From an uncultured Helicobacter sp. (lineage in GTDB: Bacteria > Campylobacterota > Campylobacteria > Campylobacterales > Helicobacteraceae): DNA of 64,000 bases. The translations under genes were made by a program, and so were the position numbers. The notes beneath the pieces are model-generated. The model was not told where the DNA came from. It ran no database searches and was given only the letters and a program-made list of their open reading frames with translations. Position 1 is the stretch's first letter; every line of letters starts with the position of its first letter. The stretch is taken from assembly GCF_910577135.1 (NCBI RefSeq), contig NZ_CAJTLL010000005.1, forward strand, positions 68,154 to 132,153, in the 5' to 3' direction. Positions 6,404 through 17,837 of the stretch are shown here, one piece after another.

Positions 6404-6619
6404 TTATATAAAAGTTTGAAAAGTATAGTTTTCAGTAGAAGTTGTTTCAGTCTTTATTGCTTTAAGTGTAAATCTTTTGTGTAGTCTTAGTGCAGCCGAG
6501 GCGGTGCAAATGCCACGTAAGGTATCGATTTTAAGCATTTGTGTGTCGATTTTGTCTAAAAAGAGATGTTCATAACTTGACTTTAGAGCTTCAAAATCAT
6601 ATAATGCGCCCTGAAACAT
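6404..6619 (-). CDS. N-terminal part of the replication initiator, cut by integration
   Basis: This 71-codon frame starts at an ATG with AAAGGA about eight bases upstream and crosses the left att core; its last four residues are host-derived. If the two att cores are joined as in the excised circle, codon 67 (the F of ENYTF) continues without a frame change into NVFRVGRGVLKL at 16672 and on into the rep frame that ends at 16071. On its own the fragment has no recognised domain. The fusion inference rests on exact coordinate and frame matching that I checked base by base. Confidence 0.75.
   Translation of the reverse strand: MFQGALYDFEALKSSYEHLFLDKIDTQMLKIDTLRGICTASAALRLHKRFTLKAIKTETTSTENYTFQTFI
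6411..6437 (+). other. attL: left XerH dif half-site of the integrated element
   Basis: The 15-base core AAAGTATAGTTTTCA at 6420-6434 recurs exactly at 16674-16688. Left of the core, AAAGTTTGAA matches the known Helicobacter difH arm as I remember it; right of the core the sequence departs from dif, as expected for a host-arm/phage-arm hybrid. The core lies inside the 3' end of the left rep fragment. Confidence 0.85.
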
Positions 6620-6659
6620 TGCTAATTCCTTTGTCTTTGTTTCCTGATTTTTACCTACC

Positions 6660-6689
6660 CCTTGCAGGTTTTAACTTGCAAGGTTTTTT
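6660..6689 (+). promoter_or_regulatory. Hairpin upstream of rep: terminator or candidate double-strand origin
   Basis: Arms CCTTGCA (6660-6666) and TGCAAGG (6677-6683) form a perfect 7-bp stem, followed on the plus strand by six T. It would terminate plus-strand transcription, but no plus-strand element gene leads into it. It lies 41 bases upstream of the rep start, where rolling-circle elements often keep an origin hairpin. Confidence 0.4.
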
Positions 6690-6726
6690 ATGCCTTGAAT
6701 CTTACATTAAAAAACTTAAAAACCTT

Positions 6727-7017
6727 TTAAACCAAAAAAACCCCTAGTTTATCTCTTAGTTGCTGTGCCTGTGCGTTGTATTTGTTTGTCTGGGCTGGAG
6801 CCTGTGGGTAAGTAATGTGAGTAGTGTATGTGTAATACTTGCTTACTTTAATGCCCAAAAAGCGCCGCCAGTGCGTATGCTGCACCGAGTGTTTTATGTT
6901 GATTCTACTTTTCCATAGGTTGTAACTACTCATAGCCGCGTTATACGCTCTTATGTCTTTATCAATGTCAATCACCATTAAGAAAAAGCCAAAGTCGGGC
7001 GTGTGTGCGGTTTGCAT
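6727..7017 (-). CDS. Element protein of unknown function downstream of the holin
   Basis: The 96-residue frame starts one base after the holin stop, which indicates translational coupling. It is rich in Tyr, His and Gln, with HTHWRRFLGIKVSKYY in the middle and a Gln/Ala-rich C-terminus. No membrane segment or known motif is seen. In the circular form it is the last gene before rep. Function is unknown; a lysis accessory or structural role is possible from position only. Confidence 0.6.
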   Translation of the reverse strand: MQTAHTPDFGFFLMVIDIDKDIRAYNAAMSSYNLWKSRINIKHSVQHTHWRRFLGIKVSKYYTYTTHITYPQAPAQTNKYNAQAQQLRDKLGVFLV

Positions 7018-7018
7018 T

Positions 7019-7411
7019 CTATTTCTTTACTAGCTTAAAAATTTCTGCCGTTTTTTCAAACGTCTTGCCACCAAAGTAGAATCCATAAATAAGCATAGCG
7101 ATAGTAGAGTATAAGTCCATTATGTGCAGTGGCACTTTATTAATGAATGGTAGCACTATCACTATAACGGTATAGATAAGCATTATAATAGCTCGTATGT
7201 GGCGGTTAAGCCAAGAGCCGCTCTCTAAGTCTTTTTGATACCTTAGCGTGGCTTCACTCATTACCGCCTTGTCAAACTCTACCTCTAGTAAGGCAAATTC
7301 CTTTGTAATCTCACCCCTTATCATCTCTCGCTCGCTATCGCTAGGGATTTTGCTTATTGCCCGCTCGGCGGTTTTAAAGATATTTCGAAATACTGATAAT
7401 GCGCTACTCAT
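7019..7411 (-). CDS. Holin-like protein with membrane segments (3TM holin family)
   Basis: A 130-residue protein with an N-terminal helical, charged cytoplasmic part (residues 1-60), then GSWLNRHIRAI leading into two or three hydrophobic helices up to residue 115, and a basic end. This order and the SWL-R-R signature match the 3TM holin family of phages and gene-transfer agents (GTA_holin_3TM). AAAAGGGGGG lies upstream of the ATG. Downstream of the transglycosylase gene, it completes a lysis module. Holins form pores that release the muralytic enzyme. Confidence 0.75.
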   Translation of the reverse strand: MSSALSVFRNIFKTAERAISKIPSDSEREMIRGEITKEFALLEVEFDKAVMSEATLRYQKDLESGSWLNRHIRAIIMLIYTVIVIVLPFINKVPLHIMDLYSTIAMLIYGFYFGGKTFEKTAEIFKLVKK

Positions 7412-7475
7412 TTATGCCCCCTTTTCTTTCTTTTGCGTGGGATATTTCGCATATACCCCCTGACACAATAGCCCT

Positions 7476-7637
7476 TTACCTTAACTCTACCCTTTTTATT
7501 AAGGGCTTTTTTAGCACTTTTTTACGCGCGTTGCGTTGCGCTTGTGCTTTCTTTGTATTCCTTACATTTTGCGCGTATTCCCGCGCCCTTTCGTGTTCCC
7601 CAAATAAAGCTAAAAACTCTTTTTCCCAATCTTGCAT
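7476..7637 (-). CDS. Small basic protein between transglycosylase and holin
   Basis: A 53-residue frame starting with ATG directly after the transglycosylase stop. The N-terminus is acidic/aromatic (MQDWEKEFLALFGEHE) and the C-terminus strongly basic (KKAQAQRNARKKVLKK). A TAAAGG site lies about eight bases upstream. No membrane segment. It may be a lysis regulator or a small DNA/capsid-binding protein; its position within a tight operon supports that it is real. Confidence 0.6.
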   Translation of the reverse strand: MQDWEKEFLALFGEHERAREYAQNVRNTKKAQAQRNARKKVLKKPLIKRVELR

Positions 7638-8411
7638 TTATACACCTTTACGCACGGCTTTGTATGCCATATAGATTAAAGCCACCTTCCACGCTAAAGC
7701 GAGAATCGCCCCTGTGGTAAAGACTATCCCCGCGCCCTTAAAAATCATCTTTACGTCCTCTTTAGCTGCCCTTATGGGATTTTTGTATTCCACTATGCTG
7801 TTAAAAGCATACTTGCTTATACCTACGATGCTTAAGGCAAAGCCTTGCAAAGAGGGCATAGAATCAAACATTCTTACTAGCGCGTTTTGATTAAGTAGCT
7901 CGGCTTTAACCTGCTCCCACGATTTCCCCGCGTATCTTGGTGCGTTTGAGATATTTATCACGTCTGCTTCGCTTAATACGCGTTCATCGCTTAACGCCTC
8001 GCCCCCAGCTGTCTTTAACGCCTCACTTAGTTTGAATATTCCTAAGCTTGTAGTTAAAGACAAGAGACGAATTTTATTTAATTGCCCTTTAGATTCTGCC
8101 ACTAGTAGGGCTTGCTTCATTCCTATAGAGTCAAACTGAAACGCCCCGTATCCAAACCCGCGCTTATTGTTGTAAATCGCCCTGCCATAGTTAGATTCTG
8201 TAATGGCTGTCTCTCTTAGCATAGCCCTTAAGTTATCTACATTTGCCCCCATAGCGAAGTTTTGCACCGCGTATTCTATGGCGGCGGTGAGCTCCGCGTC
8301 GCTATTAATACCGTAGCATTTAAATCTATCACTTTGACTCATAATCACACCTCCTGTAAATCCTAAAATTAAACATATTCCAAACATTCCAAATACCACA
8401 AAAAGCCCCAC
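7638..8411 (-). CDS. Membrane-anchored lytic transglycosylase-like protein
   Basis: The long form starts at a GTG (8411) and gives 257 residues with an uncharged hydrophobic N-terminal helix of 22 residues. An in-frame ATG at 8342 has a perfect AGGAGG seven bases upstream and gives 234 residues without that helix; both starts may be used. The core has ETAITESNYG and GFGYGAFQFD, the Glu-containing and GxGxFQ-like motifs of the goose-lysozyme/SLT fold. A C-terminal hydrophobic helix follows. Tailless membrane phages carry such enzymes in the virion to open peptidoglycan at entry or exit. It sits upstream of the holin. Confidence 0.7.
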   Translation of the reverse strand: MGLFVVFGMFGICLILGFTGGVIMSQSDRFKCYGINSDAELTAAIEYAVQNFAMGANVDNLRAMLRETAITESNYGRAIYNNKRGFGYGAFQFDSIGMKQALLVAESKGQLNKIRLLSLTTSLGIFKLSEALKTAGGEALSDERVLSEADVINISNAPRYAGKSWEQVKAELLNQNALVRMFDSMPSLQGFALSIVGISKYAFNSIVEYKNPIRAAKEDVKMIFKGAGIVFTTGAILALAWKVALIYMAYKAVRKGV

Positions 8412-8414
8412 GTC

Positions 8415-8777
8415 TTAGCTCTCATAGATGATAAAGTCGGCTTGCGCTAGCCAATGCGTGCTTGAGCTTACATTTCTTCTTGTCATAAACCATATTATTA
8501 AGCCTGTATTTTCCTCTCTATCCCTGCTTATCAAATTATCCAAGATAAAATCACCGCTAAACTCTAGCGTTTCGTTTGAATCCTTAAAAGTGGCAAGGTT
8601 GTTATAGTTCGCCCCGTAAGCCGTGCCTAGGCTATAACCGCCCCTATGTAAATAGGCGGTAAACTGGTAAAAGTCCCCTGATAAAAATTGCCCCCAGTGG
8701 AGGCTATGCGCACTTTTGCCGCCCCGCCTTTGGAATCTTGCAAGTTGGTTATATGCCCTCTGTCCATAGATAGACAT
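8415..8777 (-). CDS. Putative virion protein, unknown
   Basis: A 120-residue protein rich in Tyr, Gly, Asn and Arg, with a beta-type pattern (GYSLGTAYGANYNN, then LEFSGDFILDNLI and GLIIWFMTRRN). Its start overlaps the end of the preceding gene by 29 bases, so translation is probably coupled. No membrane segment. By position between membrane proteins and transglycosylase, and by composition, a minor capsid, vertex or spike role is plausible, but no family is recognised. Confidence 0.65.
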   Translation of the reverse strand: MSIYGQRAYNQLARFQRRGGKSAHSLHWGQFLSGDFYQFTAYLHRGGYSLGTAYGANYNNLATFKDSNETLEFSGDFILDNLISRDREENTGLIIWFMTRRNVSSSTHWLAQADFIIYES

Positions 8778-9048
8778 TTTGCACTTGTGCGGGCACGCCC
8801 TCGCGGGTATATACGTCTGTAATTCTAAAGCCCGTATTGCGATTATCTACCAAAAAGGCGTCCTTACGCTCGGGATTGAGTGAGATATACACCTTTACAT
8901 CCACGGGGTAGTCAAGGAGCAAAAAATACGCGCACGCCCCTAAATTGACTTGATTATATTCCCTATCGCAAGGCAATTCTAAACTTTGCAATGGATTTTG
9001 TTGCTTTGCAAAGCTTGTATTTTGTTTGCTAAAAAGTAAGTTACTCAT
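8749..9048 (-). CDS. Putative beta-rich minor virion protein
   Basis: A 99-residue protein with an unstructured Gln/Asn-rich first third, then alternating hydrophobic strands (ACAYFLLLDYPVDVKVYIS, GFRITDVY, VQNVYLWTEG) that fit a small single jelly-roll. The ATG overlaps the upstream stop by four bases (8749-9048 against 9045-9425). Such small beta proteins serve as penton or spike parts in membrane-containing phages; that role is inference. Confidence 0.65.
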   Translation of the reverse strand: MSNLLFSKQNTSFAKQQNPLQSLELPCDREYNQVNLGACAYFLLLDYPVDVKVYISLNPERKDAFLVDNRNTGFRITDVYTREGVPAQVQNVYLWTEGI

Positions 9049-9425
9049 TTACGCCCCTTTATTTTAAAAACTATAAGTAAAACTCCTAATAAAACACACC
9101 ACATATAAGGCGTTTTAAACATATTACTTATTTGAATGCCTAAGCTGCAGTTGCCCTTTGTGGCTTCTATAACCGCCTCTTTATTCTGTGCGGTAATCCC
9201 TAAAATCGCGCTAAAAGCATTATTTGTAATACCACTGATAGTATTTCCTATGGCGTGTAAATCCTCTCCCATAAGCCCTAATTTCGTGCTTGTATCAAGT
9301 ATCGCGCCGCTTAAGTCTAGGTTTATCCCATTATCTACATAATAGGAATTATCCCCTATTGTAGCCGCTGAGCTGCTTTGACTGCTGTCTGTTTGACTTA
9401 AGTCTAATCCAAAATTACTTGCCAT
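9045..9425 (-). CDS. Tail-anchored virion membrane protein candidate A
   Basis: A 126-residue protein with a Ser/Gln-rich polar N-terminus, an amphipathic middle part with alternating Asn/Ile, and one C-terminal hydrophobic helix ending in KIKGRK. It is the third of three consecutive proteins with this layout (9045-10113). The start has GGAGGGATTCT before ATG. PM2-like virions contain several such proteins in the internal membrane. Confidence 0.7.
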   Translation of the reverse strand: MASNFGLDLSQTDSSQSSSAATIGDNSYYVDNGINLDLSGAILDTSTKLGLMGEDLHAIGNTISGITNNAFSAILGITAQNKEAVIEATKGNCSLGIQISNMFKTPYMWCVLLGVLLIVFKIKGRK

Positions 9426-9453
9426 AGAATCCCTCCAACATTACAAATAATGC

Positions 9454-9876
9454 CTATTTGCGCTTACCTAACATAAGCGCTGCCATTACACCGATTAAGG
9501 CTAGAGGTATTAACGGGCTTGATAAGCCGCCCCCTTGAGATATGCCCCCGCCTATGCTATCGCTCCCGCCGCTTAAGCCTGTGGAGGCACTGCCTGCGCT
9601 GCCACTCCCTCCACCTACGCTCGCACTGAATCCTAACTCATCTCTTTGTGAGGTCGTGTTTGAGTTTGTGGCGGTATTATGCGGGCTGGTAGTAGTGCTA
9701 CCGCCTCCGAAACCTCCGTTTGCCTCATTATATACGCTCCCACTGCTCCCTATGTTAAAGGTATTGCCCCCGCCAAAGAGATTTGAGAGGTTGCTCCCCG
9801 TTACCGCGCCATATGACGTGTTTTGATAGAGATTAGTTGTGTTGTTTGTAGTTTTTTTGCTTGACCACCACCCCAT
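9454..9876 (-). CDS. Tail-anchored Gly/Ser-rich virion membrane protein candidate B
   Basis: A 140-residue protein that is dominated by Gly, Ser, Asn and Thr, with repeated GGG runs, and ends with the hydrophobic helix PLIPLALIGVMAALML followed by GKRK. Very low complexity suggests a flexible linker or fibre-like exposed part anchored in the phage membrane. It lies between two other tail-anchored proteins in the structural block. Confidence 0.7.
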   Translation of the reverse strand: MGWWSSKKTTNNTTNLYQNTSYGAVTGSNLSNLFGGGNTFNIGSSGSVYNEANGGFGGGSTTTSPHNTATNSNTTSQRDELGFSASVGGGSGSAGSASTGLSGGSDSIGGGISQGGGLSSPLIPLALIGVMAALMLGKRK

Positions 9877-9882
9877 AGTGCC

Positions 9883-10113
9883 CTACTTACGATTAAAGAT
9901 AAAAAGCGCCGTGCCAATAGCAAGTATGACGCCACCAATAAGCATTAGCTTTGCATTGCTTAAGTTGATTTTGTTTTGCGTCTCGGTCGCGTGCCAGTTT
10001 GCATTAGCTTGTTGCCTTGCTATGTCGTTTGCTGTCTGGTTACTTGAGTAGCTATTGTAGATATTTACGCCCTTATCTACCAAACTACCGATAGAATCAA
10101 AATTCCAATCCAT
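9883..10113 (-). CDS. Tail-anchored virion membrane protein candidate C
   Basis: A 76-residue protein with a polar Asn/Gln/Ala-rich N-terminal half and a C-terminal hydrophobic helix (LMLIGGVILAIGTALFIF) ending NRK. The GGGGGATTCT-ATG start context is the same as for several other element genes. It lies 59 bases downstream of the capsid gene and heads the set of three tail-anchored proteins. Confidence 0.7.
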   Translation of the reverse strand: MDWNFDSIGSLVDKGVNIYNSYSSNQTANDIARQQANANWHATETQNKINLSNAKLMLIGGVILAIGTALFIFNRK

Positions 10114-10172
10114 AGAATCCCCCTTATTAGATTAACCCATTTTGCACGGCTCTGTGTTATGCCGTGTCTTTT

Positions 10173-11381
10173 TTAGCCTTGTGCTTGTGCAGTACGGTTT
10201 GCCTCTGCTAGTGCCACTTGTTGTAAAAGCTGTGGTAAATCCTCGTAGTTTTGATATACCTCTACTAGGATTTCCTCCGTCGCACCATTAAGCACGCTTG
10301 CAAATTTATTGTTAAAGTCGATAGTCAAGCGCATTTGATTGAAACTCATAAATACTAAAGAGTTGTTCATATCGCCAAAGTAGTTACTCGCTATATGATA
10401 CACTCCATAGAATACGCCTTTACCATCTGGGCTGTCGCTTAGCTCTTTGCCAAATAGCATTTGCGAGAGGCTAAACTTTTGTAGCATTTCATTTTTAAGA
10501 ATTTCTGGCGTGGTATCCACTAGGATATTATTTCCATCTGCAATTTTAATCCTGTCTATCATACCATCTAGTCGCTCGTTGGTTTGAGAGTTTCTAAATA
10601 CTATGATAAAGTCCTTTATCCATAGGTTGGGGGTAAGTTCAATATATTGCCCCTTACCGCCACCGCTAAAGCCCTTTGAGATAACCTTTTGCACATAGAG
10701 ATTACCCATTTGAGACAAGAATTGTTCTTGTCTGTTTGCTTGAATCTCGCTTGTTATCCAATACTTGCTACTGCAATTGACATAGGTATTAGCAAGGGAT
10801 AGAGTAGCCGCGCCCTCATTATCATCACTTGCCCCCTCTGCTCTTGCTAGCATAGATTTGAAACATACTTCTTGCGGCTCGTTCTTATAGGTAAGTTGGA
10901 AGCTATTAAAGAGCCAAGTGCAGATGTTTGTTTGTGTAGCCCCTATCTGGTCAAACATTGCAAAAGGTATAGTGATTACGAGCTTAAACTCTGCTACCCC
11001 TTGAGTTTGCCCCGCTTTTATGCTTACACTCTCTGGGATTTCCATATATTCAAACTTACCGCGATTTTGCAAGGTGTTAATAAATCTAAAAATAGCAAGT
11101 GAAGTAACGTTTTTTACCTCGGTGTTACCATTTAGCTTTATTTGCACGTTGCTAAAGAGATTGTAAATGTGGTCGTCTGCATAATTGATTGTGTATGCTG
11201 TGTCGCTTGCTGGGGCAGTAGTTACCTTAGCTACGATTTGCCCTGTGATGGTTAAAATCATTGCCAATGCGCGCTTATTGCGATACCGCCCTAAGTCTAT
11301 AACCACATTTCCATTTGGTTGCCACTGCGCCCCTGTGCCGTCTGGTTCGATATTCTTACGTCCGTTAAATACGCCTGCCAT
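10173..11381 (-). CDS. Major capsid protein, double jelly-roll type
   Basis: The ATG at 11381 is chosen because AAGGAGG lies just upstream; a longer frame to 11429 lacks a site. The product has 402 residues, close to PRD1 P3. It shows no membrane segment and a long alternating beta pattern in two halves: VVIDLGRYRNKRALAMILTI near the N-terminus and ELTPNLWIKDFIIVFRN starting the second half, later GVYHIASNYFGD and LRLTIDFNN-like strands. This two-barrel layout, the length and the adjacent packaging ATPase and membrane proteins indicate a DJR capsid protein of tailless phages. A structure prediction would be decisive. Confidence 0.8.
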   Translation of the reverse strand: MAGVFNGRKNIEPDGTGAQWQPNGNVVIDLGRYRNKRALAMILTITGQIVAKVTTAPASDTAYTINYADDHIYNLFSNVQIKLNGNTEVKNVTSLAIFRFINTLQNRGKFEYMEIPESVSIKAGQTQGVAEFKLVITIPFAMFDQIGATQTNICTWLFNSFQLTYKNEPQEVCFKSMLARAEGASDDNEGAATLSLANTYVNCSSKYWITSEIQANRQEQFLSQMGNLYVQKVISKGFSGGGKGQYIELTPNLWIKDFIIVFRNSQTNERLDGMIDRIKIADGNNILVDTTPEILKNEMLQKFSLSQMLFGKELSDSPDGKGVFYGVYHIASNYFGDMNNSLVFMSFNQMRLTIDFNNKFASVLNGATEEILVEVYQNYEDLPQLLQQVALAEANRTAQAQG

Positions 11382-11391
11382 AGAATCCTCC

Positions 11392-11481
11392 TTATAGATT
11401 TGGTTTTTTGAGTTTTGAGAGTTTAGCAAATACGATACTTGCTACCAATGCCGTAACGACTGTTTCTAAAATCGCTTTCAT
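11392..11481 (-). CDS. Tiny single-pass membrane peptide upstream of the capsid gene
   Basis: A 29-residue frame starts at ATG 11481 with AAAAGGGGG upstream and stops eleven bases before the capsid start; the SD of the capsid gene lies right after its stop. The sequence is a hydrophobic helix (AILETVVTALVASIVFA) with a basic tail. It resembles the next peptide upstream (KAI-hydrophobic-K), suggesting tandem duplication. PM2-type virions carry comparable tiny membrane proteins. Confidence 0.65.
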   Translation of the reverse strand: MKAILETVVTALVASIVFAKLSKLKKPNL

Positions 11482-11493
11482 ATACTCCCCCTT

Positions 11494-11608
11494 TTAGCTA
11501 ATTTGTGGAATCTTAGTCTTGATAAGATTAAACAATACGATACCGACTACTACGCCGATAATTGCCTTTAACGTTTAGCCCCGCTTTGATTGTGAATTTT
11601 AAGCTCAT
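11494..11608 (-). pseudogene. Tiny membrane peptide gene with frameshift or ACG start
   Basis: ATG at 11608 overlaps the ATPase stop (ATGA), but its frame runs into an unrelated short end. A different frame in the same stretch encodes KAIIGVVVGIVLFNLIK, clearly similar to the neighbouring 29-residue peptide. Removing one A from the AAA in CTAAACG joins both into a 37-residue protein. Alternatively translation starts at ACG after a GGGG site. Either a lesion or an unusual start. Confidence 0.5.
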
Positions 11609-12228
11609 TGTAGCCCCTTTTCTAGTTGATGTATTAAGGTTTGAGATAACCTTATGCGAGTAGCCTTGTTATCCCCTAAAGCTACCCGCATAAAATCACC
11701 TCGCGGCAAGTATTGTGAATCCTCGGCGATGTCTTTATCTAACGTCTTGCGTATATACTCATAATCCGTATAACTTTTCCCTATGCGCCCTATGTAGAAT
11801 ACGTCCGTTTGAGACACTATCGCCTTTGGTGTATCTTGCAAACGCCTTGCCATCACGATTAAGTCTATCTCTCTATGCCGACCGTAGTTGATAAGCTTAT
11901 AGAGTTCTAACTCTTTGTCTAGCATATTCTTATAGTAGAAGTCTATTTCATCTATCACTATGCAAATATTTTCCATCGTGGCTATGCTACCTAAAAGCTC
12001 CTCTAAGGCGTTAAAATCATTCAAGTAATAGATATAGCTTACCCCGCTATAAAAATCCTCTTGTAACTCGCTTTGATTGACTTTATCTCTAAAGTGTGTA
12101 GGGATAGAGTGCATAATGGGGCTTATAAAGATAACGGGCTTACTTTGTGCTAAACCTAACGCCGTGGCTAGCATAGTTTTACCGCTACCCTTATTTGCAA
12201 AGATGGTAGTAATTGTGTTTTGTTTCAA
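11605..12228 (-). CDS. Packaging ATPase (FtsK/HerA/A32-like)
   Basis: A 207-residue P-loop NTPase. Walker A is FANKGSGKT (residues 10-18), Walker B is CIVIDEIDF (about 112-120). A following NYGRHREIDLIVMARRLQD with SQTDVFYIG downstream is the sensor region typical of DJR-phage genome-packaging ATPases. The start is TTG with AAAGGGGG upstream; it overlaps the stop of a tiny peptide gene. This gene next to a DJR capsid gene is the hallmark pair of tailless membrane phages. A Zot-type filamentous-phage ATPase is the alternative but would lack such a capsid gene. Confidence 0.85.
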   Translation of the reverse strand: MKQNTITTIFANKGSGKTMLATALGLAQSKPVIFISPIMHSIPTHFRDKVNQSELQEDFYSGVSYIYYLNDFNALEELLGSIATMENICIVIDEIDFYYKNMLDKELELYKLINYGRHREIDLIVMARRLQDTPKAIVSQTDVFYIGRIGKSYTDYEYIRKTLDKDIAEDSQYLPRGDFMRVALGDNKATRIRLSQTLIHQLEKGLQ

Positions 12229-12314
12229 AACAAGCCCCCTTTACATATCTCTATGACAAGCAAGCTTAAGCAAAAGGCTATGCTAAAAAGTGAAACTACT
12301 TTCCAATTAATCAT
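12225..12314 (-). CDS. Tiny single-pass membrane peptide
   Basis: A 29-residue frame with AAGGGGGATTCTAA before ATG. It is almost entirely one hydrophobic helix (VVSLFSIAFCLSLLVIEI) and its TGA overlaps the TTG start of the ATPase. Too short for most gene finders, but spacing, SD and overlaps on both sides support it. It is probably a virion membrane component. Confidence 0.65.
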   Translation of the reverse strand: MINWKVVSLFSIAFCLSLLVIEICKGGLF

Positions 12315-12847
12315 TTAGAATCCCCCTTGTTTTGATTATCTTTACGCGGCTCTTTGTTACGCTTTAGTTTTTCAAAGCCAATTGCAGAATCTATTATCAT
12401 TGCAATACTTGAGAGTATAAGCAGGATTAGCCCTACCTTGCCCCCCGCCCCTACGCTTATATACTCGGCTAGCGCGCTTTGGTTACTTTCTACCATTACC
12501 TTAATGCCCGGGTTAAGCGGTTCATTTACCCGCGCCTTTTTGAGAGCCTCGCACGTTGAGACAAAGCCTTTGACTATCTCTTTGCTGGATTCTATGGTTT
12601 TGCGGCTTAGCTCGTCTTTTTGCGGGTCGCGCTTTTCTCTTAAGATAAAGTCTAACTCTTGAGAACTTAGCCGTTCAAGTGTGCTAAGGCTTCTTTGAGA
12701 GTAGCCTAAGTCGTGGATTTTTTGCGCTTTTGCAAGGTTAGAATCCCCGCTTTTACCCCCGCTTGAATCTCCGCTCGGGATTCCGCCCGTGATACCGCTT
12801 TTAGATTCCGCTTGCGGATTCTGTGGCTTTTTGTGCGTTAGTTTCAT
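12311..12847 (-). CDS. Membrane protein with long polar N-terminal domain
   Basis: A 178-residue protein: a Gly/Ser/Lys-rich unstructured start (1-45), a charged helical middle part (45-130), one hydrophobic helix around 138-158 (VGLILLILSSIAMIID) and a basic tail. The start lies within the end of the overlapping 50-residue gene. Layout suggests a membrane-attached assembly or DNA-delivery protein. No known family. Confidence 0.65.
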   Translation of the reverse strand: MKLTHKKPQNPQAESKSGITGGIPSGDSSGGKSGDSNLAKAQKIHDLGYSQRSLSTLERLSSQELDFILREKRDPQKDELSRKTIESSKEIVKGFVSTCEALKKARVNEPLNPGIKVMVESNQSALAEYISVGAGGKVGLILLILSSIAMIIDSAIGFEKLKRNKEPRKDNQNKGDSK

Positions 12848-12953
12848 TTTTCTTTTCCTTGTTTAAGAGATAGAATCCATAAACTGCAATTCCTACCCCC
12901 ACCATTCCCACTAAAGCTACTACACTTTGCAAAAGTGAGGGCGTCTTATCCAT
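12801..12953 (-). CDS. Small single-pass membrane protein
   Basis: A 50-residue frame: MDKTPSLLQS, then a hydrophobic helix (VVALVGMVGVGIAVYGFYLL) and a polar Lys/Glu/Asn tail. It overlaps the gene before it by 34 bases and the gene after it by 47 bases in different frames, typical of compact phage genomes. AAGGAAAAG for the next gene lies inside it. Confidence 0.6.
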   Translation of the reverse strand: MDKTPSLLQSVVALVGMVGVGIAVYGFYLLNKEKKNETNAQKATESASGI

Positions 12954-13192
12954 AAAATCAAGATTTTTATAGCTTCTTTGTGCGCTTTTTTATCGATTTT
13001 TTCCTGTTTGCGCCCCGCATAGAGCTTTTTTTGCAGCCTTGCTTCGACTTGAGATTCTATTTTGTTTATAAAATCATTATCATATTGCACGGGCTCACGC
13101 GCGCTTTCTAACGGCTCCTGTGGCGTTAGAGTAATGTTTCCCTCGCTTGCTGGCTCTACGTTAGCATTTTGTGCATTTTGTGTGCTATCCAT
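12920..13192 (-). CDS. Small charged protein, unknown
   Basis: A 90-residue protein with a polar acidic first half (Gln/Asn/Glu/Pro-rich) and a helical basic second half (IESQVEARLQKKLYAGRKQEKIDKK is its central charged stretch, residues about 46-69), ending in a short hydrophobic-basic tail. No known motif. It could be a small nucleoprotein or scaffold; position is between early genes and the structural block. Confidence 0.55.
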   Translation of the reverse strand: MDSTQNAQNANVEPASEGNITLTPQEPLESAREPVQYDNDFINKIESQVEARLQKKLYAGRKQEKIDKKAHKEAIKILILWIRRPHFCKV

Positions 13193-13246
13193 TAGTAAAG
13201 CTCACTTTTTGGGATTTTGGGCGCGTTTTGTGCCTTTTTGATACTC

Positions 13247-13384
13247 TCACCCTTGAGAGAGAAAAAGCTGTGCTAATTCCTGCTTACTTTTGCGGTTTAG
13301 CTCACTGGCTTTGCGTTCATTACTTGTAAGCAATTCCACTAAATGCGCTTTAGTGTATGTGTCCATTATAGAATCTAGGTTCAT
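13247..13384 (-). CDS. Small helical protein at the head of the late operon
   Basis: A 45-residue frame with GAGGGG upstream of ATG 13384. The sequence (YTKAHLVELLTS, then KSKQELAQLFL) resembles a small helix-extension-helix of the SAP/Rho-N kind, which binds nucleic acid; the resemblance is weak. It is the first gene after the 390-base gene-free stretch and thus probably the first of the late transcript. Confidence 0.5.
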   Translation of the reverse strand: MNLDSIMDTYTKAHLVELLTSNERKASELNRKSKQELAQLFLSQG

Positions 13385-13778
13385 TTGTTACCCCTCGTTT
13401 TAAATTTCAAGGGGCATTCTAACGCAAAGCAAAAAGTGCCCTAAAAAGCGTCATATTGGATTATAAGCGCGATTATGTGATAATATGAGATTTTGCGTTT
13501 TTCGTGGTTTTAAGTTTGTTTGTGTATTTGTGGATTGTTTAAAAGTTCATTTTGATAAAAGCACTTAAGGGATTATTTGAGATAAACCCCTTAAGTTTAG
13601 CCTCTAAAACTTGCCTTTTAAGAGTTAAATAACAATCGCTAAAAAGTAAAATTTTAAACTCTATGTTACTTAATGACACAAATCTATTAAAATTTGCAAG
13701 GCAATGGGTATTATAAAGCCCCTATAAACATATGCTTGAATTTTGCTCTCCGTCCATTGTACGCCTCCTTTACGCGGT
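13385..13778. promoter_or_regulatory. Gene-free control region with an inverted repeat
   Basis: This AT-rich 390-base stretch separates the early block from the structural block. It holds a perfect inverted repeat CTTAAGGG (13564-13571) / CCCTTAAG (13588-13595) with a 16-base loop. A second pair, AACGCAAA near 13431 and TTTGCGTT near 13490, flanks the late-gene start. An 11-codon frame with AAAGGAGG (start near 13764) lies just after the recombinase and may be a leader or a broken gene. Likely contents are the late promoter and possibly a replication origin or resolution site. Confidence 0.45.
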
Positions 13779-14346
13779 TTATGGTGTGCTCTTTTGCCCT
13801 TGTAGCCATTTGTAAAGCTTCGTGCGTGAGATTTTCATTAGCTTTGCCGTTTTAGTAATGCTACCACCGCTGGCAAAGAATGCCTCATCAAACGCCGCTT
13901 TATCTACATTGATAAACGGGCGCCCGCTTTTGAGTGTGCCCTTTGCCTTTTGTATCGCTATGCCCTCTAGTTGCCGCTCTTTGATATGCGCTAGATCCAT
14001 TTGCGCCACGTATCCTAGAATGCTAATAAGCATATCCGTAACCACGCCCTTGCTGGTATCTAATCCTTGAGAGAGAAAGCGCACAATCACGCCCTTATCC
14101 TTGCAAATGTTGAGAATCTCGCATAGGTCCCTATGATTACGCGCTAATCTATCTATGCTGTGACAAATGATAGTATCGCCCTCGCGCACATAGTCTAGCA
14201 TTGCGTTAAGCTGGGGGGCGGTTTTCTGCCTTGCTACCGCTTAACTTTTCTATAAATACCTTGTTGCACTGCTCCTGTTTGATAAGCTCTAGCTGCCTTG
14301 CCTCGTTTTGTAGTATCGTGCTTACTCTTACATATGCTACTATCAT
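13779..14346 (-). pseudogene. Serine recombinase (resolvase/invertase), frameshifted
   Basis: The ATG at 14346 (GTAAGGAGG upstream) opens MIVAYVRVSTILQNEARQ, the catalytic N-terminus of a small serine recombinase with S9. The frame stops after 46 codons. The rest, from CHSIDRLARNHRDL to a C-terminal helix-turn-helix (GGSITKTAKLMKISRTKLYKWL), is in another frame. Shortening the six-C run (six G on the plus strand, 14213-14218) by one base joins both into a normal 188-residue enzyme. It may resolve phage dimers or invert DNA. The indel may be a true lesion, slippage or an assembly error. Confidence 0.75.
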
Positions 14347-14668
14347 AGAATCCTCCTTACTCTACTACTATGAATCGGACGGGCTCCTAGCTCTGCGTTA
14401 CTGACGCACTCATCTAAAAACGCCTCTAAATGCCCGTGCTCTAACTGCGCGCGCTCTATCTCACCCTCGGCGATGTCGAATGTTTGCGGTTCGCCCTCGT
14501 TATCGCGCTCCCATAGCAGCGCATAGAGTTTGTAATCGCATTTGATAGAATCTACATTGCTTATTTGCAAGTAAAAATCCGCCTTTATATCCTCGCGCGC
14601 CTTGTAGAGTAAAGGCTCGTGCGTGCCCGCTTGCCCTGTATGCCATTTACATATTGTGCTATGTTCAT
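14343..14668 (-). pseudogene. Small early gene, probably frameshifted
   Basis: A well-formed start (AGGAGGGCTAAA-ATG at 14668) leads into a 27-codon frame, while an overlapping open frame without start continues to 14343 and reads as a normal acidic protein (HEPLLYKAREDIKADFYLQ..., ending RVRRIL). Adding one A to GTAAATGG joins them into 108 residues. The TGA overlaps the recombinase ATG. Family unknown; a TTG at 14570 could start a 75-residue version. Confidence 0.5.
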
Positions 14669-14787
14669 TTTAGCCCTCCTGTTATTTCTAAAAATGCCAT
14701 TGTAAAGAGCATTCCTAAGATAAAGTTCAAATTGAATACATTATCTATCCACCACCGCCAATTTTTCTTATTGTTATTCTTTTTCAT
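14665..14787 (-). CDS. Small membrane protein in the early block
   Basis: A 40-residue frame with ATGGAGG seven bases upstream of the ATG. A Lys/Asn-rich basic head and KNWRWWIDNVF precede a hydrophobic helix (FILGMLFTMAFLEI). The TGA overlaps the ATG of the next gene (ATGA). It may anchor an early complex to the membrane; function unknown. Confidence 0.6.
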   Translation of the reverse strand: MKKNNNKKNWRWWIDNVFNLNFILGMLFTMAFLEITGGLK

Positions 14788-14862
14788 AAAGCCTCCATTG
14801 TAAATTTATCTCTAAATTTTATCCTTTTGTAAATCAATATGCAAGCACAACTTTTTTTTACT

Positions 14863-15021
14863 TCAAATGTTACACTTGCACGATGTACATTTAACTACAC
14901 ATTTATTTACACTCGGTTCCTTACGCTTTTTATGTAATGCCTTAAGTTCATTATTACGTTGTCTGCCTCTACCTCGTCGTGTTTTTTTGTAGATTTTTGC
15001 TTCTATAAAGTGATAATCCAT
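14863..15021 (-). CDS. Small basic protein with a C-terminal cysteine cluster
   Basis: The start at 15021 has GGAG six bases upstream; an in-frame ATG twelve bases earlier is possible. The 52 residues are very basic (KKTRRGRGRQRNNELKALHKK) and end in NKCVVKCTSCKCNI, four cysteines that could bind zinc. A small nucleic-acid binding regulator is the natural guess. Confidence 0.55.
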   Translation of the reverse strand: MDYHFIEAKIYKKTRRGRGRQRNNELKALHKKRKEPSVNKCVVKCTSCKCNI

Positions 15022-15086
15022 AAAGCACTCCATATCCCGCGCGATAAGCCTACCTGTTTTTTTTTTGCTATGTGTTTATTAGCTAT
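15003..15086 (-). CDS. Short frame with perfect SD but ATA as start
   Basis: AAAGGAGG lies six bases before ATA GCT AAT, in the same context (GGAGGCAAACA) that precedes the true ATG of the gene starting at 15519. The frame encodes 27 residues, basic then hydrophobic/aromatic (GIWSALWIITL). It includes a ten-A run. Either an AUA start is used, or ATG mutated to ATA and the gene is dead. Confidence 0.35.
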   Translation of the reverse strand: MANKHIAKKKQVGLSRGIWSALWIITL

Positions 15087-15099
15087 TGTTTGCCTCCTT

Positions 15100-15519
15100 T
15101 TATTTCAATTCTAAAGCGCTTTGCGTTTGTGCTAGCTTTTTGCGCTCTCTAAAGCGCGCTTGCCTTATGCGATTATCTATCCTTTTTTGCTGTGCCTTTT
15201 GCTCGGCTTTGTCTTTAGCCCTTGCCTCACGCGCCTTTTGGGCTTCTAACTCTTTTGCCCTTTGTGCCTTAGCTTGAAGCGCGGCGCGTATGTCCGCTTC
15301 ACATCGCTTCCTTTGTGCATAGAGACGCGCGTTATACTTGCTAAAGTTGTTATTATCCCTATATGCCCTTAAGTTTCGCACGATTTCATAGATATACTGC
15401 CTTTTAGCGATATAGAGATGTGCGTTATTTTGCATTTCATAGGGGTATTGCGTGTTTCGCTCGTTATACCATTCCTTTAATGTCTGTGTGTAAAGCTCTA
15501 TGTTATTTGCTGCACTCAT
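15100..15519 (-). CDS. Alanine/lysine-rich coiled-coil protein
   Basis: A 139-residue early-block protein: an aromatic/Asn-rich first half (YTQTLKEWYNERNTQYPYE) and a long highly charged helix rich in Ala, Lys, Glu, Arg and Gln (about residues 70-135) that should form a coiled coil. AGGAGG lies upstream of ATG. It overlaps the previous gene by 17 bases. No family recognised; nucleic-acid binding or scaffold role possible. Confidence 0.65.
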   Translation of the reverse strand: MSAANNIELYTQTLKEWYNERNTQYPYEMQNNAHLYIAKRQYIYEIVRNLRAYRDNNNFSKYNARLYAQRKRCEADIRAALQAKAQRAKELEAQKAREARAKDKAEQKAQQKRIDNRIRQARFRERKKLAQTQSALELK

Positions 15520-15796
15520 TGTTTGCCTCCTTAAATTCTGTTATGTGTGCTGCTGTGGCTGTGATTGCCTTGCCTTGCTGCTCTATGTCGGGTATTTCTA
15601 TGATGTCTATATCGCATAAGCTTAAGCTAGCGGCTTTTACCAGTGCCTTAGCCTCTGAATCTGCTTTGATTATCATCACATAGAATCCTGCGTCTGTGAT
15701 TTCTTGAAGGCTACAAGTTAAAGTCTCTAGTCTCTCACTCTGTGCTAATACCTTTAAGTGGCTATTGCCAATTTTTACGATTAAGTAAAACTTCAT
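15503..15796 (-). CDS. Small early-block protein, unknown
   Basis: A 97-residue acidic alpha/beta protein: a strand-like start (MKFYLIVKIGNSHLKVLA), then alternating helices and strands (GFYVMIIKADSEAKALVKAA, DIDIIEIPD). No membrane segment or known motif. It overlaps both neighbours by a few bases, so it belongs to one translationally coupled early operon. Confidence 0.6.
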   Translation of the reverse strand: MKFYLIVKIGNSHLKVLAQSERLETLTCSLQEITDAGFYVMIIKADSEAKALVKAASLSLCDIDIIEIPDIEQQGKAITATAAHITEFKEANNECSK

Positions 15797-16017
15797 TTCA
15801 AGTCCTTTCGTGTGCTACTGCTAAGCGCTGCATAGGTAAAGAGTGTTTGCTGTGCCGCCTCTCTCTTAAGCTGTGCGAGTTCCTCTTTATCGATTATCGC
15901 ATATTGATTACCCGTGGCATTGCCTACGATTTCGCTTATATACTTTAAGGGGATAAAGCCTTGCGTCCCTGTCGTGTAGCGCACTACAAGGTTAGTGTCT
16001 TTGTATGGATTGTGCAT
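15793..16017 (-). CDS. Small early-block protein after rep
   Basis: A 74-residue protein with an N-terminal beta-like part (NLVVRYTTGTQGFIPLKYI) and a helical C-terminus. Its end overlaps the next gene by four bases (ATGA type). GGAGCAG precedes the ATG. In the circular genome it is the first gene after rep. Function unknown; a replication accessory or repressor is possible by position. Confidence 0.55.
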   Translation of the reverse strand: MHNPYKDTNLVVRYTTGTQGFIPLKYISEIVGNATGNQYAIIDKEELAQLKREAAQQTLFTYAALSSSTRKDLK

Positions 16018-16070
16018 AACTGCTCCTTTGTTTTAAGATTTCACATTCTAGTTTGTAAGGTCGCTTACCC

Positions 16071-16687
16071 TTAAGGGCTTGCTCCCTTAGCTAGAATGTG
16101 TTTTGCAAAATGTCTCATTGATACTTTTTGCTTTTTGTTGATAGAGAGATACTTAAAGAATTCTTTTGTAGAATATTTCAAGTATTGAGAGTCACGTTTA
16201 AGATTCTTAGATATTTTCTTATTATGGGGGCTTGATGGCTTACGTTTTCCTTGCTGTGTGGCTTTTGGTCGGTTTAGTGTTGTATGGTTTTTACTTAATT
16301 TTAAGGTTGCTTCATAACGTAATGTGCCATATTGTGTGGGGCATTTCATATTCCTTTGTCTATCTTTTATCGCTTTATTATAGATGCAAAGCTGCCCCGC
16401 CTCGCCAAAGTCTAGGTAGTTTGTCCCCTTATACTGCTTTGTTTTGTGTGCTTTTTGTGTTTTTAGTAGCTGTGTGGTGTCTAAGCACACGTCCGCTTGT
16501 GTAAAATTGAAACTTTTTTTGTAAGTAAATATTTGAGTAGCTCTTTATGCTGCTTTTGCTGTCTCTGCGTTAGCTTGTAGTTTTGTGCTAAAGCATAGAT
16601 TTCAATGCTAAATCTATTTGCTTTTGGGATTTTTCGTAACTTTAATACACCCCTCCCCACCCGAAAAACATTGAAAGTATAGTTTTC
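16071..16687 (-). pseudogene. C-terminal part of the rolling-circle-type replication initiator, frameshifted
   Basis: The frame enters from the right att core (ENYTF at 16673-16687) and reads NVFRVGRGVLKLRKIPKAN... to LLTKK, then stops at 16481 because of a run of seven A (plus-strand T7, 16514-16520). With eight A it continues as SFNFTQADVCLDTTQ into the frame ending at 16071. That part has LDFGEAGQLCIYNKAIKD and YGTLRYEATLKL, the C-terminal signature of phage gpII/gpX-like rolling-circle initiators (Phage_X type), where a conserved strand with Y/N-K precedes R-E. Joined with 6404-6619 the protein is about 270 residues. Confidence 0.65.
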
Positions 16688-16690
16688 AAA
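16671..16690 (+). other. attR: right XerH dif half-site of the integrated element
   Basis: The 15-base core AAAGTATAGTTTTCA (16674-16688) repeats attL. To its right AAAT continues the host arm. Joining the left arm of attL with the right arm of attR gives arms TTTGAAAA and TTTTCAAA around GTATAG, a perfect dyad. It lies about 70 bases upstream of xerH. Confidence 0.85.
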
Positions 16691-16760
16691 TTGGATATTA
16701 CAAAACTATGCTATGCTTACAGCTCTACATAAGGGCTTTAAAGCTCTCTAAGGTGCAATT

Positions 16761-17837
16761 ATGAAATATCCATTGCGTTATAAAGATGACTTTTCTGCAA
16801 ATATGCTGTTTTGGATTACGCGCTTCATACGTTACAAGCTCACTACATTATCCAATCATCAAGTTTATGATAAAGAGCGCATTTTAGAAGCGATAAATGC
16901 CCTAAACAACGATGAAATAAACTCTTTAGAATCTTTAGAATCCCTCTGCAAAAGCGTAAGAAAAGCAGGAATGATAGGGATTAATACCTACGCCACTCCC
17001 CTACTCAAGCTCTATACATTCCTCGCACAAAGTAATATTCACACAATGGAAGAAATCGATGAAGAGGTGCTAAGCGATTTTTTGAGCGTGGAGACAAGCT
17101 TCCTTTCAAATGCGAGTAAAAAAAATTATAGAATTGCACTCATTGGGCTATTTGGCTATATTGATAAACAAAATGAGAACGAAGGCAAATCTTATGTGTA
17201 TAACATCACACTTAAAATCGGTGCCCTACAAGGCAAAAGTGGGCAAAAGTTGCCCGCATATTTAAATCAAAATGAACTTGAGCGGTTTTTACAAGGCATT
17301 GACGAAATGCCCTTTGGCGAGAAAATCGCTGCACGCAATAAACTCATCATCAAACTCATTGTCTATACGGGCATACGCGTGAGCGAGGCGCTCAACCTCC
17401 GCCGCAAGGATATATTCCCTATGCAAGACTGCTATCTCGTGCAGATTCGCGGCAAGGGCAATAAGCCTAGAGTAGCGATGATACGCAAAAGCCATATAGA
17501 GAATCTGCTCGGCGTATGGCTCACGCAACGTGAAGCTTTTGCCCCGCAGCACGATTTGCTCTTTTGCAATGCTAAAGGCAAGGCGCTCACACAAAGCTAT
17601 ATCTATAAAAATGTAGAAAATATACTGATGTCAGTGGGTCTCCGCAAGGAAAAGAATGGCGCGCATATGCTGCGACATTCTTTTGCTACACTACTCTATC
17701 AGCAAAAGCACGATTTGGTAATGGTGCAAGAAGCTCTAGGACACGCAGATTTGAATACAAGCCGTATTTACACGCATTTTGATAAAGAAAGACTGCAAGA
17801 AGTCGTCAATGCAATGGATAGTATTGGGAAATCTTAG
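16761..17837 (+). CDS. xerH: Tyrosine recombinase XerH
   Basis: The single Xer recombinase of Campylobacterota, which resolves chromosome dimers at dif. The 358 residues agree closely with the Helicobacter pylori protein as I know it, including KKNYRIALIGLFGYIDKQN and GAHMLRHSFATLLYQ. Catalytic residues are R206, K232, H302, R305, H328 and Y337. AAGGTG precedes the ATG. The gene is host-like rather than phage-like: it points away from the element and lies outside the att repeats. It is very probably the enzyme that integrated the element. Confidence 0.93.
   Translation: MKYPLRYKDDFSANMLFWITRFIRYKLTTLSNHQVYDKERILEAINALNNDEINSLESLESLCKSVRKAGMIGINTYATPLLKLYTFLAQSNIHTMEEIDEEVLSDFLSVETSFLSNASKKNYRIALIGLFGYIDKQNENEGKSYVYNITLKIGALQGKSGQKLPAYLNQNELERFLQGIDEMPFGEKIAARNKLIIKLIVYTGIRVSEALNLRRKDIFPMQDCYLVQIRGKGNKPRVAMIRKSHIENLLGVWLTQREAFAPQHDLLFCNAKGKALTQSYIYKNVENILMSVGLRKEKNGAHMLRHSFATLLYQQKHDLVMVQEALGHADLNTSRIYTHFDKERLQEVVNAMDSIGKS

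What the first reader, a model, noticed from the sequence alone, without database searches (positions are those of the whole stretch)
6404..16687. attP lies inside the replication initiator: integration cuts rep, excision restores it
The left-end frame (67 codons up to ENYTF) and the right-end frame (from NVFRVGRG) share the att core in the same phase. On circularisation they join into one initiator of about 270 residues. Integration would thus silence replication by splitting the gene, a built-in switch between dormant and replicating states.
Basis: seen in the sequence. Interest (0 to 1): 0.95.

Follow-up and report, generated by a model that had tools for sequence, protein, structure and literature searches.

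The report
Phage integration splits its replication gene
A predicted tailless prophage sits beside the xerH gene of a Helicobacter-like chromosome with its dif-like attachment core inside its own probable replication-initiator gene, so that the gene lies as two in-phase pieces at opposite ends of the prophage; integration would thus likely switch phage replication off and excision would likely switch it back on.

Summary
The core of the finding holds. A dif-type core is repeated at 6412-6439 and 16666-16693, and the ORFs running into it from both ends share one phase. They are two parts of one protein: a continuous 245-aa gene on a probably free 9.2-kb relative (G115:C33), used as the only query, hits the sister genome G001 at two places 10 kb apart, one at each prophage end. 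Continuous relatives of 237-286 aa match the left piece at their N-termini and the right piece downstream. The fold is nearest to RepD-type rolling-circle initiators; an HUH fold was not shown. The element has a double-jelly-roll capsid protein and lies at difH beside xerH. Limits: the window's own right piece is also frame-broken (an intact copy exists in G001), both att sites match the genus difH poorly on one arm, no circle was seen, and the pieces show little purifying selection. The split by integration is well supported; a working switch is inferred, and a one-way decaying prophage is the main rival. attP in a phage repressor (BPs) or regulator (XacF1) is known; attP in a replication initiator did not turn up in my ten literature searches.

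The parts
6412..6439 (.). attL: dif-like 11-6-11 site, outer (host) arm identical to the genus difH arm
16666..16693 (.). attR: dif-like site, weaker match to difH on both arms
6404..6619 (-). left piece: N-terminal part of the probable replication initiator (67 phage codons, then four host-coded codons and a stop)
16481..16705 (-). right piece, first part: frame open through the core from 16705; first start codon GTG at 16660; ends early by a frame break that the G001 copy does not have
16071..16490 (-). right piece, second part: C-terminal part of the initiator in another frame
16761..17837 (+). host xerH (single-recombinase Xer system), intact
10173..11429 (-). major capsid protein, double jelly-roll fold by model
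11605..12228 (-). packaging-type ATPase (phrog_2666)
13779..14201 (-). small serine recombinase, shortened here (140 aa against 191 aa in G001)
7638..8411 (-). conserved phage ORF; in G001 two ORFs of 195 and 136 aa, the first matching phrog_3108 (function unknown)

Best explanation
The ORFs at the two ends of this prophage match the N-terminal and C-terminal parts of one gene that is continuous in relatives and predicted to encode a rolling-circle replication initiator, with the dif-like core lying inside that gene, so integration would likely leave the prophage without an intact initiator and excision by the host recombinase XerH would likely re-create it. Shown: the repeated core, its place beside xerH, the shared phase, the one-gene-in-relatives test. 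Predicted: the double-jelly-roll capsid fold and the initiator fold. Inferred: that XerH did the integration; that the pieces are inactive apart (the left piece ends after the first predicted strand and helix, the right piece has lost its native start); that an excised circle carries a working gene. Consequence if right: replication would need no repressor in the lysogen, because the initiator would exist as a whole gene only in the circle, and no rolling-circle origin could fire inside the chromosome.
Against: No circular form or empty site was seen; only cut-size proteins came up for this lineage (P0001, 20 members, and P0002). Both att sites differ from the genus difH at 4 of 11 positions of the xerH-side arm (sequence), and G001 has no site within 3 mismatches of difH. 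The window's right piece is frame-broken and other phage ORFs differ in length from G001. Rep pieces: 3 synonymous and 6 non-synonymous differences over 249 codons. Pfam, NCBIfam, PHROGs and PDB sequence searches gave no initiator match above cut-off; the initiator model has pLDDT 69.9 and unrelated folds tie with it on VIA-align.
Confidence: 0.7

Rival explanations
1. One-way trap: the split is real but incidental. The phage integrated at difH, so lost its initiator, and the prophage has been fixed and decaying since; there is no working switch.
For: Frame-broken right piece and other altered ORFs in the window; rep pieces 3 synonymous to 6 non-synonymous and the two genes beside the left piece 0 to 7, against 2 to 1 in three host neighbours; poor xerH-side arms at both att sites; no circle seen.
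Against: In G001 the pieces and most phage ORFs are intact; ATPase and a 178-aa protein differ mainly at synonymous sites (17 to 8, 6 to 1); the middle of the prophage differs more (96%) than its ends (99%) between the two strains, which suggests exchange with other phages. Counts are small.
Confidence: 0.27
2. The cut makes a new product: the 71-aa N-terminal fragment, which keeps the native start, acts in the lysogen (for example as an interfering fragment or immunity factor), as the shortened repressor of mycobacteriophage BPs does.
For: The left piece keeps its start and upstream region and has an open frame to a stop four host-coded codons past the phage part; gene cutting that activates a product is known for BPs (PMC4557955, passages).
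Against: The gene matches initiator-like proteins, not a repressor family; no expression data; only one amino-acid difference was available to judge selection.
Confidence: 0.1
3. The two ORFs are unrelated genes that meet the att core by chance, or an assembly artefact.
For: Short ORFs of 80, 53 and 56 aa overlap one att site in other prophages; phase agreement alone has a 1-in-3 chance.
Against: One continuous gene in relatives matches both pieces; the same structure in a second assembly.
Confidence: 0.02

Closest known systems
PhiCjT23-like ssDNA double-jelly-roll prophages of Flavobacterium (PMC9719478; passages read)
   Same: Small double-jelly-roll phage, dif-type sites at both prophage ends, initiator related to a Geobacillus rolling-circle initiator
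   Different: dif motifs reported in non-coding regions with the initiator gene near the start of the prophage; XerC/XerD host; the window's element also has a packaging-type ATPase
Inovirus XacF1 of Xanthomonas (PMC5666396; passages read)
   Same: attP of a dif-integrating phage lies inside a phage ORF, which integration splits into two pieces
   Different: The split ORF12 is a possible regulator, not a replication initiator; filamentous phage
Integration-dependent immunity of mycobacteriophage BPs (PMC4557955; passages read)
   Same: attP inside a phage life-cycle gene, so that integration changes the gene product
   Different: The gene is the repressor, integration shortens and activates it, and the phage has its own integrase; here an initiator would be inactivated
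Corticovirus PM2 and tailless Vibrio prophages (PMC11630473; passages read)
   Same: Double-jelly-roll capsid; a few tailless Vibrio prophages are reported at dif sites; genome near 10 kb (PM2 size recalled)
   Different: Other hosts and recombinases; attP inside a replication gene is not mentioned in the passages seen

Membership tests
Element that exploits host Xer/dif (IMEX) | Flanked by dif-like sites at the host dif locus | tested here: met
   Core repeats at both ends, genus difH beside xerH
Element that exploits host Xer/dif (IMEX) | No tyrosine integrase of its own | tested here: met
   No tyrosine-integrase match in 21 scanned element ORFs; a small serine recombinase is present
Element that exploits host Xer/dif (IMEX) | Integration and excision by host Xer recombinase | not testable with these tools
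   Needs an experiment or reads
Double-jelly-roll tailless phage | Major capsid protein with double jelly-roll fold | tested here: met
Double-jelly-roll tailless phage | Inner membrane and virion | not testable with these tools
   No virion data
Rep_trans / RepD-type rolling-circle initiator | Curated family match | tested here: inconclusive
   P0022 sub-threshold Rep_trans (E 0.014, 15.4 bits against cut-off 29.6); the other relatives scanned had none
Rep_trans / RepD-type rolling-circle initiator | Fold of RepD-type initiators | tested here: inconclusive
Rep_trans / RepD-type rolling-circle initiator | Catalytic tyrosine and nicking activity | not tested
   Conserved tyrosines seen in alignment A5, not assigned
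Integration-dependent immunity (BPs type) | attP inside the repressor gene | tested here: not met
   The cut gene matches initiator-like proteins; no repressor match

The most novel reading that the evidence does not exclude
A replication switch made of gene rearrangement: the dif core is built into the coding sequence of a rolling-circle initiator, so the host's chromosome-dimer recombinase takes the initiator gene apart on integration and puts it together on excision. Dormancy and replication are then set by XerH and FtsK, that is by the host cell cycle, with no replication repressor needed.
Probability: 0.42. Interest if true: 0.85.

Novelty: new variant of a known kind. Interest (0 to 1): 0.64.

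Why it matters
If the switch works, the phage solves two problems with one site: no rolling-circle initiation inside the chromosome, and no need for a replication repressor. It would tie phage activation to the cell's own Xer/FtsK step and give a clear test case of gene splitting as lysogeny control in tailless phages. The comparison also points to prophages with this ATPase, several with a double-jelly-roll type capsid, beside xerH in several Campylobacterota, which I did not find described in my searches.

Tried and rejected
Close relatives of the capsid or of the right piece in IMG/VR: none. In GenBank phages: none for capsid, right piece, P0021 or the L155 capsid. Capsid alignment in GTDB genome contigs: none. 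Weak right-piece hits in G016 and G018 were read: the ORFs there are 200-aa proteins that do not look like initiators; the other weak hits were not followed. Family libraries gave no initiator match above cut-off, nor did a PDB sequence profile. The plasmid collection had no match to the island protein of L135. A first codon count (row rep_right_a) included misaligned codons and was dropped. Single-strand folding of the att regions gave stems of -4.0 and -4.7 kcal/mol, z -2.4 and -1.2; no CTX-type folded attP is claimed. The profile search also finds both ends of G001, but the profile holds those rows, so it is not used as evidence. Unrelated genes and artefact were considered and rejected.

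Papers: 10 searches; 11 papers opened by passages only, none read whole. None of the listings or passages seen describes attP inside a replication initiator, or double-jelly-roll prophages at difH. The library holds open-licence papers only.

Full report
What is there. The window holds a prophage of 10,254 bp between two copies of a core (GTATAG at 6423-6428 and 16677-16682), with xerH starting at 16761. The window's own assembly is not held; the nearest genome, G001, carries the same prophage at the same place, 97.4% identical over 9,948 aligned bases. The best named XerH relatives are H. cinaedi (84%) and H. magdeburgensis (83%), so the host is a Helicobacter or close kin; the species is unknown.

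The site. In the genus, difH (AGTTTGAAAAGTATAGTTTTCATAACT) lies just upstream of xerH; 9 of 11 genus genomes have it within 3 mismatches, G001 and G010 do not. Of the 80 named Campylobacterota xerH loci I examined 29 for the site; a dif-like site (up to 7 substitutions) lay within 300 bp upstream in 24. The left junction of the window keeps the outer host arm exactly; the xerH-side arm differs from difH at 4 of 11 positions at both junctions (by eye). In H. pylori XerH needs one of the two difH arms, and sites with two copies of the other arm hardly recombine (PMC5241119, passages). Stable integration is therefore easy to understand, while excision from these junctions is uncertain.

The gene. 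On the minus strand the left ORF gives 67 codons through the core segment, then four host-coded codons and a stop; the right frame is open through the core up to 16705, with GTG at 16660 as its first start codon. The phase at the core is the same in both. In G001 the right piece is one 196-aa ORF; in the window a frame break leaves 59 and 139 aa. A sequencing error cannot be excluded; an intact copy exists in G001.

One gene in relatives. Searching 121 family genomes with the right piece gave matches at E <= 0.1 in 10; besides G001 only G115 is convincing (E 4e-12). It lies on contig C33 of 9,219 bp, where the ORF runs to 245 aa. That contig has a similar layout by ORF reading and an ATPase match; its capsid was not matched by the window's capsid at E <= 0.001, so the two phages are distant. 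It has no dif-like core within 3 mismatches and one site at 4 mismatches outside rep, and no exact terminal overlap, so it is probably free but closure is not proven. With G115's protein as the only query, G001 is hit at residues 68-231 (C1:50778-51308) and at residues 9-58 (C1:61135-61293), the two ends of the prophage; 4 of 121 genomes matched at E <= 0.01, G071 and G083 only weakly. Metagenome proteins P0017-P0022 (237-286 aa) are also continuous. Of nine continuous proteins the left piece matched seven at E 1e-12 to 2e-5, P0016 (a shorter start call of G115's protein) at 0.036 and the island protein of L133 at 0.11; the right piece of G001 matched nine of nine at E <= 2e-4. On P0021 the left piece covers residues 1-60 and the right piece begins at 84. 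None of the continuous phage proteins shows the att-coded residues, so the site was probably acquired inside the gene in this lineage. P0002 (73% identical) begins at nearly the same residue as the cut piece, which hints at a second cut lineage; its DNA could not be read.

Other prophages at the same place. An ATPase of this kind occurs in 10 of 397 Campylobacterota genomes. Of the eight besides G001 and G115 I fetched seven (not G284): a capsid match lay beside it in five, and xerH lay in the fetched stretch in four. dif-type repeats flank the element in three of those four (L150, L155, L156; not found in L154), and dif-like sites lie on both sides in L073. L156 had no capsid match. None of these eight loci holds a relative of this initiator at E <= 0.01. 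Just inside the site, L150, L155 and L156 have an intact ORF (213, 245 and 200 aa) with a helix-turn-helix match in L150 and a weak one in L156, none in L155; in L073 that frame is interrupted. Short ORFs of 80, 53 and 56 aa overlap one site in L150, L155 and L156, meaning unknown. In G006 a prophage that looks like a gokushovirus sits at difH with its replication-type ORF whole. Among the prophages looked at, only the window/G001 lineage cuts its initiator.

Is it a working switch? For: in G001 the pieces are intact and in phase; ATPase (17 synonymous, 8 non-synonymous) and a 178-aa protein (6, 1) show purifying selection; the middle of the prophage differs more between strains (96%) than its ends (99%), which suggests exchange with other phages. 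Against: the rep pieces show 3 synonymous and 6 non-synonymous differences over 249 codons, the two genes beside the left piece 0 and 7 over 226, three host neighbours 2 and 1 over 644. Numbers are small but fit relaxed selection at the prophage ends. No circle was observed. I put the gene cut by integration at about 0.95, its being an initiator at about 0.85, a working reversible switch at about 0.42; the best reading as worded gets 0.7.

Literature. attP inside a phage life-cycle gene is known for repressors (BPs, PMC4557955) and for a possible regulator at dif (XacF1, PMC5666396). In the nearest phage kind, PhiCjT23-like prophages, dif motifs lie in non-coding regions (PMC9719478). Tailless prophages at dif are reported in Vibrio (PMC11630473). 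The ten searches did not turn up attP in a replication initiator.

Noticed in passing
L073, L150, L155, L156 (and L154, repeats not found): Phages with this ATPase, most with a double-jelly-roll type capsid match, sit beside xerH in several Campylobacterota; a hot spot for small tailless prophages.
   Followed up: partly
L045:3868-8593 (G006; contig length equals the H. labetoulli contig): A 4.7-kb prophage that looks like a gokushovirus (recognised by eye, no family search) integrated at difH next to xerH.
   Followed up: partly
window 8046-15533 against G001: The middle of the prophage is 96-98% identical to G001 while the ends and host flanks are 99% or more, as if the middle had been exchanged.
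   Followed up: no
window 7638-9048 and 13779-14201: Several phage ORFs differ in length from G001 (recombinase 140 against 191 aa; 299-aa protein as two shorter ORFs; two ORFs fused to 257 aa), so this copy seems to be decaying or carries sequence errors.
   Followed up: partly
window 6660-6683: A 10-pair hairpin followed by T's on the plus strand, just upstream of the left piece's start; terminator or replication signal, not tested.
   Followed up: no
L132, L133, L135: Distant continuous homologues of the initiator-like protein lie near ORFs that look like tyrosine integrases (by eye) in other Campylobacterota families.
   Followed up: partly
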